Below are positions 9,343 through 61,347 of a DNA stretch of 64,000 nt, in pieces (position 1 is the first letter of the stretch; each line of letters begins with the position of its first letter). The notes under the pieces are model-generated. The model was not told the origin of the DNA and searched no databases. It saw nothing but the letters and a program-made list of their open reading frames with translations. This stretch comes from Xylogone sp. PMI_703. Lineage: Eukaryota > Ascomycota > Leotiomycetes. Made by a program: the position numbers and the translations under genes. The stretch is from assembly GCA_021399445.1 (NCBI GenBank), contig JAJTUQ010000005.1:3348001-3412000 (forward strand), in the 5' to 3' direction.

Positions 9343-11219
9343 ATGGCCAAAGCCCCCAAAACAGGCGGTTGTTGGACATGCAGGCTAAGACACGTAAAAT
9401 GCGATGAAGGTTCGCCCACTTGCCTACAGTGCAATATCAGGTGTATAACTTGCCATGGATACGGCCCAAAGCCCGCATGGATGAATGGTGGGCAGAGGGA
9501 AATCGAGATAAAACGGGTTATCAAAGATACTATCAAGAAGAATATAAAGCAGCAAAAGAGGACTCGAAATCACGTCTCCAAGGGTCATGACCGAAACCAC
9601 ATCCAAGACCGACTACATGAGAGGGAATCATCTTCGCCATTACAAGATGCGATTATGGCTAGCTTAAGTGCTCAGGATGTGAATTCGGAAGAAATTCAAA
9701 GGAGTACGACTGCCTCATTCCTAGTTACCATATTCTGCTACGGCATCCGTTTTATTAGTATACCTACGAGCTAACCTACATCCCATTGACAATTTAGATG
9801 TTTCATCGTCTCCAAAAGAAATCCAAGAGATAGATCCACTGCAAACTCACCAACTCAAGAACCGCTCATTCGCAGAACCATTATCATACAAGGAATCGAG
9901 CCTATTGATGTATTACCTAGATCACGTCTTTCCTATGCAATACCCATACTACAGAAAGGGAACTTGGGATCGGGGGTGGCTCCTCTGGCTTCTGAGTAAA
10001 AATGGACCGCTGTATAGAACATCAATCGGCCTCGCAGCGCTGCATCGCTGTTCGCTTACAGGTGAAAAGAAGGAACATGGCCTTGAGTTACAGCATCACA
10101 CCAGGGCTTTGAGAGAACTTCAGAACTTCATTGGGCACTTTGACACGGATAAGATTCGGGATGATAATGACACTCTGGCTGAGATAGTGTCTTGTAGTGT
10201 AGCTCTCATTAGCTTCGAGGTGAGTTTAAGCTCATCATAACGACTATAGCCTGCTCTGGGTCCGGATCGTAGAGTAATTCTCACTAAGTTTACCGGTAGG
10301 TCTTAAGGGGAAGTACAAATAATTGGCAAGCTCATCTATTTGCAATGACATCTCTCATCAACTCCATGAATCTTCCTCTGCGAAATTCGACTTCCTTACC
10401 ACAACCATCTTCCGACAGCTTCTTTAAAAGGAAAATCCATGCAGCCCTTGAGTTCTATATTCCCGTCGTGCTTTGGATGGACATACTAGCATGCGTAGCA
10501 ACTCGTCAAAAGCCTAAACTTCTCTACGACGAATTGTTGCATCCAGATAATAACTTCAATCTTGCCAATGTAATGGGTTGTCAGAACTGGATTATGAAAG
10601 CTATTGGAGATCTAGGTGTATTGAATGAGTGGAAGCTTGACGCCCTTGCCTCGAACTCATTTGATTGCAACGATTTTAACAGGGGAGCACAAATAATTGA
10701 GGACAATTTGGAAGATGGAATTGAAATATTACATGGAGTAATAAATCAGGTGCGCTGAATGCTTGCCCTCCCCTATAATCTAATAGAGGCTAATGCAGTC
10801 ATGAGAAGGCTGCAGCCAACGCAAATGATAGCTGCATAAGTCTTATATTTGCAGCTGCCGCTTTAGTGCAGCTGCATATTCTAAGTACTAATGTCTTACT
10901 ATCTTGCTCGTCTTCACGACTCCGTAGAGCAGTAAGCTGGGTAATATTTGAGATTCAGACGGCCCAGCACACGCCTTCTGCAAGACAGATAGCTTGGCCT
11001 ATTTGCATTGCTGGTTGTGTGGCCGAAGCAGACCAACGATGTTATCTTGAAGTCCTCATAACCGACGCTTTGCATGATACAAATGGTATGAATGGGAACT
11101 GTGGAACAGTGCTAGACATTATGCGATACTGCTGGACAAAGCAGATTGAGCAGCCTGATGTACAGTGGGACTGCAGCCGGGCCATGACAGAAATGGATAT
11201 ATCCGCCCTCCTTATATAA
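9343..11219 (+). CDS. Zn2Cys6 transcription factor (TF2)
   Basis: Fungal zinc cluster regulator. Exons 9343-9757, 9798-10219, 10300-10749 and 10872-11219 sum to 544 residues. The N-terminus carries GGCWTCRLRHVKCDEGSPTC..C..C followed by HGYGPKPAWMNGG, a common extension in regulators of this subgroup. The rest (for example LMYYLDHVFPMQYPYY and RTSIGLAALHRC) resembles the fungal-specific transcription factor domain 2 family. The first intron would be only 40 bp and its exact ends are less certain than the others. It is the Zn2Cys6 gene nearest the FAS beta and NRPS genes, with which it converges, and is a candidate cluster regulator. This would differ from HC-toxin and apicidin, whose regulators TOXE and APS2 are ankyrin-repeat bZIP proteins. 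Confidence 0.85.
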
Positions 11220-11954
11220 TGAAAGAGGGATCTGTTGAAAGCCATAATTGAAAGCCGAATCAGAACGGTTGAATCTATTGATTTTCAAATGCCAGAGCTA
11301 CATGGAAATATTAGCATATATAACGGAGAGCAAGTTCCGTATATTACTTCTTACGACTGTAGAGTTTCAACAGTTACAGAATAACAAAAGATGATTAACT
11401 GAGAAATGAGTCAATAAAATAGGGTTTAACAGCGCATATAAAGCCAAATATTGGTACCGAGACCAACCTCTTCTATTTTCCATATGGACTACATGTTTAA
11501 ATTGGCTCTGCCAGTACATCAAATTCTACTTTCTAATATTCTGGTGGTCAGTGGCTACTCTAGAAGCCATAAGAAGACCCAGCACTGGCTCTATGTTGTT
11601 GTAACTGGAACCCCACATAGAGGGCCCCCACGTAGATTGCTCAGCACTTCGCTGTCAATATAAGATAACCCTCCAAATCTCAATATATTTAAAAAGCCAT
11701 TCAATTATCTATCTATCTGTATTAACATCTCTAATACAGTAATCTACACTGCACACTCAACAACCATCAGTTTCAGATGATAGGGTAAATATTCTCAAAT
11801 TTGGCATCCCAATATTTTACTCAACTATGCAAAAAAAAAAAAAAAACAATATATCCAAGAGCCTCTCCTGACTCACCGTTCCAAGGGAAAAGGGAAACAA
11901 ATAAACAAACAAAAACAAAACCCATGACTTGTATCAATGACATTAAACTTTACA
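11220..11954. other. Convergent spacer, TF2 / FAS beta
   Basis: About 735 bp between converging stop codons, so mainly 3' untranslated sequence. It contains a 16-base run of A at 11831-11846. No gene is seen. Confidence 0.6.
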
Positions 11955-59355: not shown

Positions 59356-61347
59356 ATGGCGGGCCTACCAGATTTCTCGGCCGTACCAAACTTGACGATT
59401 GATGGTCTCCCAGACTTTCCATCGTCAAAGGCCGCATTCGTTTCAAAGTCTTTAACCTTTGCCAGCTTTGGTCAGCTCGCTGCCAAAAGTGCAGTGCTTC
59501 TCCTCTCTGCTGCAGTTGCTTATGTATGCTACCTCTATACACCACTCCCAATGGTCCGTAGAAATTGTTTTACTGATAGTATTTTTCGAAAAGGTTTTCT
59601 CCGTTATTATCTACAGACTTTTCTTCCATCCCTATGCAAAGTATCCTGGCCCCTTCCTGGCAAAGATCACGCCCTTGTATGCTGGCTACCATGCCTGGAA
59701 GGGAGATCTCCACGTTGACATGTGGCGAGCTCACCTGAAGTATGGTATGTGTATCGTGCTGTGTCGTCGAAGACTGAACATTGCTGACTTATCCAGGCAC
59801 TTACGTTCGCTATGCGCCCAACCGTCTAATGATGAACACCAACACTGCTTTGAATGGTAATTACTATAGGAACGTACATCTTTGATGCAAACTAACAATT
59901 ATTATAGAAATCTATGGCTCCAAGAAACCTGTTAAGAAAGCCGCCGACTATATTGTCATGGCTCACCAGGCTCAAAACACCTTGACTTTCATTGATAAGG
60001 TCGAGCATGGCCGCAGACGCCGTCTCATGAGCCAGGGTTTCTCTACTGCCAAACTCCGCTCGTATGAGCCCAAGATTCTCAAGCGAGTGCGCAACTTCTG
60101 CGTCGCCATCCGCCGGGGTGAGATCGATATTCCCCTAACCGCCGAAGGAAAGAAGGACCCTACTCTCAAGGTCGGCGAATGGTCTGCGCCAATTGATATG
60201 TCCAAAATGAGTAAGTATTATACAGCGATTTTTATTAAATTTTTTATAGTTATGTCTATTGTTCTAACAGCAAAATAGGCAATTACTTCGCCTTTGATGT
60301 TATGGCCGACGTCGTCTTTGGCCAGGAATACGACCTGTTGGGCACTACCCGCTTCCGCTATGTGACTGAGAGTATTGAAGCCTCCAACGTCCGCATGGGC
60401 GCTCTTCTCCAATCTCCAATCTTGACCTGGGCACGACTTGACAAGTGGCTATTCCCAGCCGCATTGTACGGTCGCAACAGATTTCTCCGATTCGTAGGCG
60501 GCCTTCTGCGTCGTCTCAACGAGACCGATATTGCAAAGAGCGGCGCCATCTTTTCAGCGCTTGCCACCTTCCAAGACCCCGTCACTGGCACTGGCTTAAC
60601 CCCCCAGCAGATTGTTGCAGAGAGCACGACCATGATCGTGGCGGGTAATTATTGCACCTGCGTCGGAGAATAATCAGAGTGGCTTGCTAACACGGGAAAA
60701 TAGGATCTGACACCACCTCCACGGCAGTTGCGGGATTATTCTTCTACCTGACGCGCAACCCTGATGCTTACGTGAAGGTCTGCAAGGAGATCCGCTCAAC
60801 GTTTAAGTCGGTCGATGAGATCGAGTTGGGAACCGCCTTGAACTCCTGCGTCTATCTCAAAGCTTGCATTGATGAGACCATGCGTATCTCCCCTTCGGTC
60901 GGCAGCGCTTTGTGGAGAGAAGTTGAGGCCCAGGGCACTGACATCGATGGCATCTACATCCCTGGTGGCTGCGACGTGGGAACTGGCATCTACAGCATCC
61001 ATCACAACCCCAACTACTACCCCGATCCATTCAGCTACAAGCCAGAGCGTTGGTTAGCTTCCGAGCAGGGCACCGAGGCTGTTGCCCTTGCTCAGAGCGC
61101 CTTCAACCCATTCTCGCTTGGTCCCCGAGGCTGCATCGGCAGAAGCTTGGCCATCGCCGAAATGCAGCTGCTTCTCTCTACCATCATCTTCCTCTTCGAC
61201 TTCAAGTGCGAGAGTCACGAAGGTGAAGGCAAGGCTGGCGCTGAGTTGGGCAGAGAGAAGCCAGGAGAATTCCAGCTCTTTGATCACGTTACGAGTGCAA
61301 AGGAGGGACCCATCATCCAGTTCAGGGAGAGGGATCTTTCGAATTAA
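59356..61347 (+). CDS. Cytochrome P450 monooxygenase
   Basis: Membrane-bound heme monooxygenase of the endoplasmic reticulum. Exons from 59356 to 61347 give about 562 residues: 59356-59488, 59562-59744, 59797-59856, 59908-60210, 60279-60644 and 60704-61347. Motifs: hydrophobic anchor then FFHPYAKYPGPF; I-helix AGSDTTSTAVAG; ExxR in CIDETMRISP; the PERW block; heme loop FSLGPRGCIGRSLA with the cysteine ligand. The first intron (59489-59561, donor GTGCAG) is weak. The start and the anchor lie in different frames, and this is the only standard-length pairing that restores them. Divergent from FAS alpha, it is a good candidate to oxidise the acyl side chain or the peptide. Several P450s act in apicidin-type pathways; the exact reaction here is unknown. 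Confidence 0.92.

What the first reader, a model, noticed from the sequence alone, without database searches (positions are those of the whole stretch)
9343..61347. Cyclic-tetrapeptide-type cluster with dedicated FAS pair, possibly undescribed
A 4-module NRPS with terminal cyclising C domain lies in one region with FAS alpha, FAS beta, a class IV aminotransferase and a P450. Genes of these types occur in the HC-toxin and apicidin clusters, which make histone deacetylase-inhibiting cyclic tetrapeptides bearing a 2-amino fatty acid. Epimerase pattern, regulator type and gene set differ from what I recall of those two, so the product may be new. Product identity is inferred.
Basis: partly seen in the sequence, partly recalled or inferred. 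Interest (0 to 1): 0.9.

Follow-up and report, generated by a model that had tools for sequence, protein, structure and literature searches.

The report
Fungal fatty-acid-linked four-residue peptide cluster
A fungus (Xylogone) carries, in one stretch of DNA, the genes for a machine that probably makes a small ring of four amino acids together with its own fatty-acid factory; the set resembles known toxin-making clusters but seems built around a different peptide synthetase whose product is unknown.

Summary
The window (Xylogone sp. PMI_703 by 100% protein matches) encodes a four-module NRPS (5,411 residues in the public model) with a terminal C domain, both fatty-acid-synthase (FAS) chains, a branched-chain-type aminotransferase and a P450. 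FAS alpha and the aminotransferase are copies apart from the housekeeping ones. The NRPS's nearest relatives are two NRPSs on unnamed contigs that appear to carry FAS alpha too (equal contig lengths) and three Metarhizium NRPSs of unknown product; no named HC-toxin or apicidin producer is among the 120 listed of 7142 relatives. It has two E domains with intact motifs where HTS1 has one, and no ankyrin-type regulator was found in the window. So it works like, but is not filed with, the HC-toxin/apicidin family. I think it makes a cyclic tetrapeptide of D-L-L-D pattern with a FAS-derived 2-amino acid, most likely at module 4 (inference). Against: Metarhizium enzymes share the pocket letters of modules 1, 3 and 4, yet no Metarhizium FAS alpha was visible in the list, so the FAS may serve otherwise. 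Histone-deacetylase inhibition is untested. New variant of a known kind; moderate interest.

The parts
19947..36351 (-). Four-module NRPS, 5411 aa, C(remnant)-ATE-CAT-CAT-CATE-CT, three introns
   Evidence: 100% match to P0001 'peptide synthetase [Xylogone sp. PMI_703]'; exon map with stop directly after 19950; domain order
32274..33716 (-). Epimerase domain of module 1 (aa 861-1341), motifs HHAIIDLVSW and GWFTT
   Evidence: window coordinates computed from the exon map
21270..22703 (-). Epimerase domain of module 4 (aa 4513-4990), motifs HHLVIDLVSW and GWFTT
   Evidence: window coordinates computed from the exon map
23190..24491 (-). A4 adenylation domain (aa 3917-4350), pocket letters DVGYLLIIW; proposed site for the fatty amino acid (inference)
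   Evidence: coordinates computed from the exon map
19950..21245 (-). Terminal condensation (cyclising-type) domain (aa 4999-5411), motif SHALSDG
11958..18068 (-). FAS beta chain in four open frames: SAT, Fas1 helical, meander, thioesterase-like insertion, MaoC dehydratase, acyl transferase
   Evidence: Pfam; its 1088-aa piece is 58% identical over 1052 aa to the housekeeping-type copy on C22 and 43% over 958 aa to a third copy on C20
52240..57536 (-). FAS alpha chain, 1681 aa, no C-terminal phosphopantetheinyl transferase domain
   Evidence: P0241, exon map, Pfam, C-terminal alignment
38139..39254 (+). Branched-chain-type (class IV) aminotransferase; the public model P0121 probably lacks the true N-terminus (family-like residues continue upstream, by eye)
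   Evidence: Pfam PF01063, BCAT matches in PDB and NCBIfam (NCBIfam scores below the curated cut-offs), tree, translation
59356..61344 (+). Cytochrome P450, heme motif at 61111
   Evidence: Pfam (3' exon only; two 5' frames gave no match), motif and translation; start Met read by eye
9343..11216 (+). Zn2Cys6 regulator with Fungal_trans_2 domain; candidate pathway regulator
43755..44831 (-). Second Fungal_trans_2 regulator (no Zn cluster motif found beside it)
   Evidence: regex screen
40265..41944 (-). Class III aminotransferase, four open frames of which three were scanned; membership in the cluster unsure
   Evidence: Pfam PF00202 in three frames; best NCBIfam match PRK07483, each piece below the whole-protein cut-off
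46729..47911 (+). Probable metallo-beta-lactamase-fold protein (HWHRDH motif by eye; no Pfam match); membership unsure
48501..49706 (-). Alpha/beta hydrolase, possibly secreted (N-terminal hydrophobic stretch by eye); membership unsure
   Evidence: Pfam in 48501-49232, none in 49275-49706; translation

Best explanation
A single secondary-metabolite cluster makes a cyclic tetrapeptide carrying a fatty-acid-derived 2-amino acid. Shown: the gene set, the motifs and the kinships. Inferred, all of it: the dedicated FAS alpha-beta pair makes a medium-chain acid, its carrier domain being activated in trans because the alpha chain has no transferase domain of its own; the P450 (or another oxidase) oxidises the chain; the BCAT-type aminotransferase converts a 2-oxo acid to a 2-amino acid; the NRPS loads four residues, epimerises residues 1 and 4 and closes the ring with the terminal C domain, giving a D-L-L-D pattern. 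The fatty residue is most likely loaded by A4 (second choice A2), because A4's pocket looks hydrophobic and its letters are confined to this clade (window, P0005, P0006, P0060/63/67 and Metarhizium) in the rows compared. A Zn2Cys6 factor rather than a bANK factor would switch it on.
For: FAS beta and the aminotransferase flank the NRPS on its two sides. Of 120 NRPS and 115 FAS-alpha contig lengths compared, only the window's own contig, 69464 and 50757 are shared: P0005 with P0243 and P0006 with P0242, from the same sources, so the nearest FAS-alpha chains seem to sit beside the nearest non-Metarhizium NRPSs. FAS alpha forms a clade at 100 with just these two (24 of 120 listed rows plus two own copies) and lacks the PPT domain, as does P0243. 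The aminotransferase falls outside the 106-row clade holding the genome's housekeeping-type copy P0188 (all 120 listed rows). Both E domains and the terminal C domain keep their motifs. HC-toxin and apicidin pathways use the same enzyme types (PMC3729494, PMC4109984).
Against: Three Metarhizium NRPSs nest inside the FAS-linked clade (two of them again). M. acridum and M. brunneum share the pocket letters of A1, A3 and A4 exactly and differ at A2 by two and one letters, but no Metarhizium FAS alpha is visible among the 120 listed (many rows unnamed). No aminotransferase row carries the two FAS contigs' lengths (119 of 120 lengths compared). The same comparison gives one chance coincidence between FAS and aminotransferase rows (6200, a short contig from different sources), so equal length alone is not proof of one contig. 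A1 letters are the same or one letter off across the wider family and A3 letters are shared with the A. niger group and P0007, so at most A2 or A4 can be specific. No shared promoter motif was convincing. No expression or metabolite data.
Confidence: 0.5

Rival explanations
1. The FAS pair belongs to the cluster but its product is not one of the four residues: it acylates or otherwise decorates the finished peptide, which itself is made of other amino acids and resembles what Metarhizium makes.
For: Pocket letters of A1, A3, A4 equal, A2 nearly so, between the window NRPS and M. acridum/M. brunneum, with no Metarhizium FAS alpha visible in the list. An AAT-family gene lies just left of the window.
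Against: No stand-alone acyltransferase was matched in the 36 of 178 open frames (80 aa or more) of the window that were scanned; the BCAT-type enzyme beside the NRPS is better explained by a 2-amino acid.
Confidence: 0.27
2. Two unrelated pathways lie side by side: the NRPS cluster, and a separate FAS-dependent pathway with the P450, hydrolase and lactamase-fold protein.
For: FAS alpha lies 16 kb from the NRPS, with the aminotransferase and four genes of unsure role between; Metarhizium has the NRPS but no FAS alpha visible in the list.
Against: FAS beta lies on the other side of the NRPS from FAS alpha; NRPS and FAS alpha are on contigs of equal length in two other cases with concordant divergence (69%/73% and 57%/64%).
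Confidence: 0.13
3. It is an HC-toxin/apicidin-family (HTS1/APS1) cluster and makes a histone deacetylase-inhibiting cyclic tetrapeptide of that series.
For: Same enzyme classes: four-module NRPS, FAS alpha and beta, BCAT-type aminotransferase, P450; HTS1 and this NRPS are of similar length (5218 aa, PMC3729494; 5411 aa).
Against: Two E domains with intact motifs against one; no ankyrin-type regulator found in the window; no named Bipolaris, Cochliobolus, Alternaria or Fusarium protein among the 120 listed NRPS relatives of 7142; none of 7 HDAC matches in the genome is on this contig, which says little.
Confidence: 0.07

Closest known systems
Metarhizium NRPSs P0002-P0004 (named peptide synthetase, vlms, NRPS 8 by their sources; no product found in the papers seen)
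   Same: 61-62% identity to the 3188-aa query piece (P0004 over 70% of it), same domain order incl. N-terminal C remnant, both E domains with intact motifs in P0002 and P0003, same A1, A3, A4 pocket letters in P0002 and P0003
   Different: No Metarhizium FAS alpha visible among the 120 listed; genomic surroundings not visible here
Unnamed NRPSs P0005 (contig length 69464) and P0006 (contig length 50757)
   Same: 57% and 69% identity; FAS alpha relatives P0243 and P0242 on contigs of the same length
   Different: P0006 is a fragment of 3133 aa; no aminotransferase row with those contig lengths
HC-toxin TOX2 cluster (HTS1, TOXC, TOXF, TOXH, TOXE)
   Same: Four-module NRPS, FAS alpha and beta, BCAT-type aminotransferase (PMC3729494, parts 1-3 of 6 read)
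   Different: One E domain, bZIP-ankyrin regulator, alanine racemase, MFS gene beside the NRPS, genes spread over more than 500 kb; here two E domains, Zn2Cys6 regulator, about 52 kb; an MFS gene lies at 1.9-3.1 kb of the window, not beside the NRPS
Apicidin/apicidin F cluster (APS1/APF1)
   Same: NRPS, FAS alpha, aminotransferase, P450s (PMC4109984: abstract, sections 18 and 28, and part 1 of section 30 read)
   Different: No FAS beta, bANK regulator, P5C reductase, O-methyltransferase; none of these last three types was matched in the 36 of 178 window frames scanned

Membership tests
HC-toxin/apicidin (HTS1/APS1) clusters | Four-module NRPS with terminal C domain | tested here: met
[quoted passage not shown]
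   E domains in modules 1 and 4, both with intact motifs; one E in HTS1 per PMC3729494
HC-toxin/apicidin (HTS1/APS1) clusters | NRPS orthologous to HTS1/APS1 | tested here: inconclusive
The query was the 3188-aa C-terminal piece and many rows have no name
HC-toxin/apicidin (HTS1/APS1) clusters | Dedicated FAS alpha | tested here: met
   Separate clade from the housekeeping-type chains, PPT domain absent
HC-toxin/apicidin (HTS1/APS1) clusters | Dedicated FAS beta (TOX2 only) | tested here: met
   A copy of its own, 58% to the C22 copy; kinship to TOXC not tested, no tree possible
HC-toxin/apicidin (HTS1/APS1) clusters | TOXF/APS4-type aminotransferase | tested here: inconclusive
   BCAT type and apart from the housekeeping-type copy; a row named TOXF by its source (P0229) is in the same 13-row group only with weak support 79; TOXF itself not held
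HC-toxin/apicidin (HTS1/APS1) clusters | bANK (basic region plus ankyrin) regulator beside the NRPS | tested here: not met
   Six-frame regex screen: one ankyrin-like string, inside the NRPS, taken as chance; no listed Ank_2 match in the window, the list being capped (150 of 613 candidates scored). A basic-region-plus-ankyrin gene lies 32 kb beyond the right end
HC-toxin/apicidin (HTS1/APS1) clusters | Product is an HDAC-inhibiting cyclic tetrapeptide | not testable with these tools
   No metabolite data
NRPS lineage of P0002-P0006 | Common descent and shared architecture | tested here: met
   Support 100 in two trees (50 of 120 rows, 16 rows); domain orders (P0006 a fragment; P0005 without the N-terminal C remnant)
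Housekeeping fungal FAS | FAS alpha groups with primary-metabolism-type copies and ends in a PPT domain | tested here: not met

The most novel reading that the evidence does not exclude
A second, separately arisen lineage of FAS-coupled cyclic tetrapeptide synthetases, unrelated in recent descent to HTS1/APS1, making rings of D-L-L-D pattern with a D-configured 2-amino fatty acid at position 4, whose members in Metarhizium have shed the FAS while keeping the same pockets.
Probability: 0.2. Interest if true: 0.65.

Novelty: new variant of a known kind. Interest (0 to 1): 0.45.

Why it matters
In the papers I saw, clusters that join a fatty acid synthase to a four-module NRPS are HC-toxin, apicidin and their relatives. 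A further lineage with both FAS chains within about 50 kb, and with relatives in insect-pathogenic Metarhizium that may lack the FAS, would show how such building-block factories are gained and lost and would give a defined place to look for new cyclic peptides.

Tried and rejected
Promoter motif search: six candidate promoters against ten control stretches; the commonest 7-mer was in 5 of 6 and 2 of 10, three 9-mers in 3 of 6 and 0 of 10; no significance test was run and I do not lean on it. Identification of the NRPS family as ChNPS4/PesA: PMC2823734 (passages) says ChNPS4 A domains lie loosely with Metarhizium PesA without bootstrap support, but I could not tell whether P0002-P0004 are PesA, and no named Bipolaris or Alternaria protein is among the 120 listed relatives, so I dropped it. 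Malformin synthetase MlfA as a homologue: one E domain in the published reading (PMC6298953, passages), dropped. Clonostachys NPS4 (PMC7513725, passages) is an eleven-module peptaibol-type enzyme, dropped. First FAS tree had one own copy read on the wrong strand (17% of columns filled) and was replaced. A third FAS pair on C20 was looked at as a possible closer relative and was more distant. Self-resistance HDAC near the cluster: none of 7 matches on C21. KS gate: the FAS alpha reads GAGMGG where the three named chains and the C22 copy read GSG(I/L/M)GG; no chain-length forecast made.
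Full report
Identity of the window. The window is G000:C21:3348001-3412000 of a 50.1 Mb genome in 25 contigs. Three of its proteins match Xylogone sp. PMI_703 at 100% over the aligned stretch (P0001, P0121, P0241), on a contig of the same length as C21, 5548043. Xylogone is a genus of Leotiomycetes incertae sedis; PMC11708051 (two passages seen) calls PMI_703 a mycoparasite.

What is there. The NRPS is one 5411-residue protein in four exons, C(remnant)-ATE-CAT-CAT-CATE-CT. The stops that one search reports inside its terminal C domain fall at the last intron of that map. 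The N-terminal C piece covers about 220 residues; the motif lists show no HHxxxDG-like string in it. FAS beta lies downstream of the NRPS, the aminotransferase is transcribed divergently upstream, and FAS alpha and the P450 lie further right as a divergent pair. Between them are a class III aminotransferase, a Fungal_trans_2 regulator, a probable metallo-beta-lactamase-fold protein (by eye) and an alpha/beta hydrolase, whose membership is unsure. I scanned 36 of the window's 178 open frames of 80 aa or more against Pfam. Outside are an AAT-family gene on the left and ABC transporter pieces on the right.

Domain detail. E1 and E4 keep HHxxIDLVSW and GWFTT (12 of the 120 listed rows, own included). 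In two Dothideomycete rows (P0022, P0043) E4 is not found as a piece over 300 residues, and in a third (P0018, Glonium) it has lost both motifs; in the A. niger and Conoideocrella rows E1 has lost them. Both E domains look intact in the window, P0002, P0003, P0005, P0007 (GWFTA in its second) and P0064; P0006 is a fragment with only E4. PMC4109984 quotes the HTS1 epimerase motif as (S/A)RTXGWFT(T/S); the window has SETVGWFTT and GSIVGWFTT. The C domain after E1 reads FNHTIVDG and the terminal one ISHALSDG. The pocket letters, placed by core motifs with the GrsA numbering recalled from memory, are A1 DVLFLLGVA, A2 DVGDLLVVT, A3 DVSFLLSIW, A4 DVGYLLIIW (24 of 120 rows, own included). I make no residue forecast from them beyond the comparison.

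Kinship of the NRPS. In a FastTree of 50 of the 120 listed rows the window NRPS sits with P0005, P0006 and Metarhizium P0002-P0004 (six rows, 100), the Metarhizium rows nested beside P0006. A second tree by another program on the C-terminal half of 16 proteins, two of them from Metarhizium, gives the same order. Only 120 of 7142 matches are listed, 7986 candidates were scored, the query was the 3188-residue C-terminal piece, and many rows are unnamed, so the lack of a named HTS1 or APS1 is a rank argument, not a proof.

Kinship of the FAS. Searches find three FAS pairs in the genome: this one, a pair on C22 that groups with housekeeping-type chains, and a third on C20. FAS alpha here is 53% identical to the C22 copy over 1527 residues and 46% and 33% in two stretches to the C20 copy; the 1088-residue FAS beta piece is 58% and 43%. 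With 24 of the 120 listed rows and the two own copies, the window chain, P0242 and P0243 form a clade at 100, apart from the chains among which the C22 copy falls. The window chain and P0243 stop before the phosphopantetheinyl transferase domain; by my reading, 115 of 120 rows carry PF01648, the five without being the window's, P0242, P0243 and two others of 1318 and 1506 residues. The KS active-site cysteine (ACATA) is kept. APF5 of apicidin F is listed as 4995 bp (PMC4109984), which also leaves little room for that domain (inference).

Linkage. Of 120 NRPS and 115 FAS-alpha contig lengths, three are shared: the window's own, 69464 and 50757. Equal length and equal source are taken as the same contig; this is inference, since the contigs could not be opened. 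As a control, the FAS and aminotransferase lists share one further length, 6200, from different sources, which is a chance coincidence of a short contig. P0005/P0243 and P0006/P0242 thus pair an NRPS with a FAS alpha, and their distances from the window agree (57%/64% and 69%/73%).

Aminotransferase. It is of the branched-chain type, keeps the lysine motif SAKVGGNYAP (motif recalled), and with P0122, P0123 and P0132 forms a clade at 99 outside the 106-row clade that contains the genome's own P0188 (all 120 rows; deeper forks are weak). Its paralogue on C12 is 65% identical over residues 2-233. None of 119 lengths compared equals 69464 or 50757, so its linkage is seen in the window alone.

The key tension. 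If one of the four residues needed this FAS, enzymes with the same pockets should need one too. Two Metarhizium NRPSs have the same letters at A1, A3 and A4 and differ by one or two letters at A2, yet the FAS-alpha listing holds no Metarhizium row that I could see (names are cut short or missing, only 120 of 1955 matches are listed, and chains under 656 or over 2090 residues were not candidates). Either Metarhizium finds its fatty residue elsewhere, or the FAS does not feed the NRPS pockets.

Literature. In the listings, in parts 1-3 of PMC3729494, in the sections named of PMC4109984, and in the passages seen of PMC3554632, PMC2823734, PMC10967133 and PMC8340494, I found no description of this cluster or of a FAS-linked relative of the Metarhizium NRPSs. 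The library lacks most subscription papers.

Verdict. Observation confirmed; interpretation partly supported. It works like the HC-toxin and apicidin pathways in its enzyme set but is not filed with them, since two tested features are not met. New variant of a known kind, interest 0.45.

Noticed in passing
L029:2069-3582 (C21:3444069-3445582), 32 kb right of the window: A gene with a basic region RRRIQNRLAQRNY followed by ankyrin repeats, i.e. the bANK build of TOXE/APS2-type regulators. Twelve other places in the genome match its first exon at E 1 or less, two of them below 0.001, so the nearness may mean nothing.
   Followed up: partly
C20:1922202-1930332: A third FAS alpha-beta pair, adjacent and divergent, more distant from the window pair. 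In three 10-kb stretches beside it the largest open frame is 654 aa; four of seven frames of 220 aa or more were scanned (a P450, a GMC oxidoreductase, two without match). The stretches next to the pair itself were not read.
   Followed up: partly
L022:8251-9384 (just left of the window): An AAT-family (penicillin acyltransferase-type, PF03417) gene, which could acylate a peptide.
   Followed up: no
window 7354-8736 and 3-1070: An amidase (best NCBIfam PRK06565, below its cut-off) and an amidohydrolase (Xaa-Pro dipeptidase-like, below its cut-off) at the left edge.
   Followed up: no
G000:C19:150457-172903 and C21:2414690-2435262: Other large NRPS genes in the same genome (one open frame of 7634 aa on C19), seen in the condensation-domain search.
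   Followed up: no
P0018, P0022, P0043, P0056, P0079: Family members differ in which epimerase has decayed: E4 in the Dothideomycete rows, E1 in the A. niger and Conoideocrella rows, while their A1 pocket letters are the same or one letter off.
   Followed up: partly
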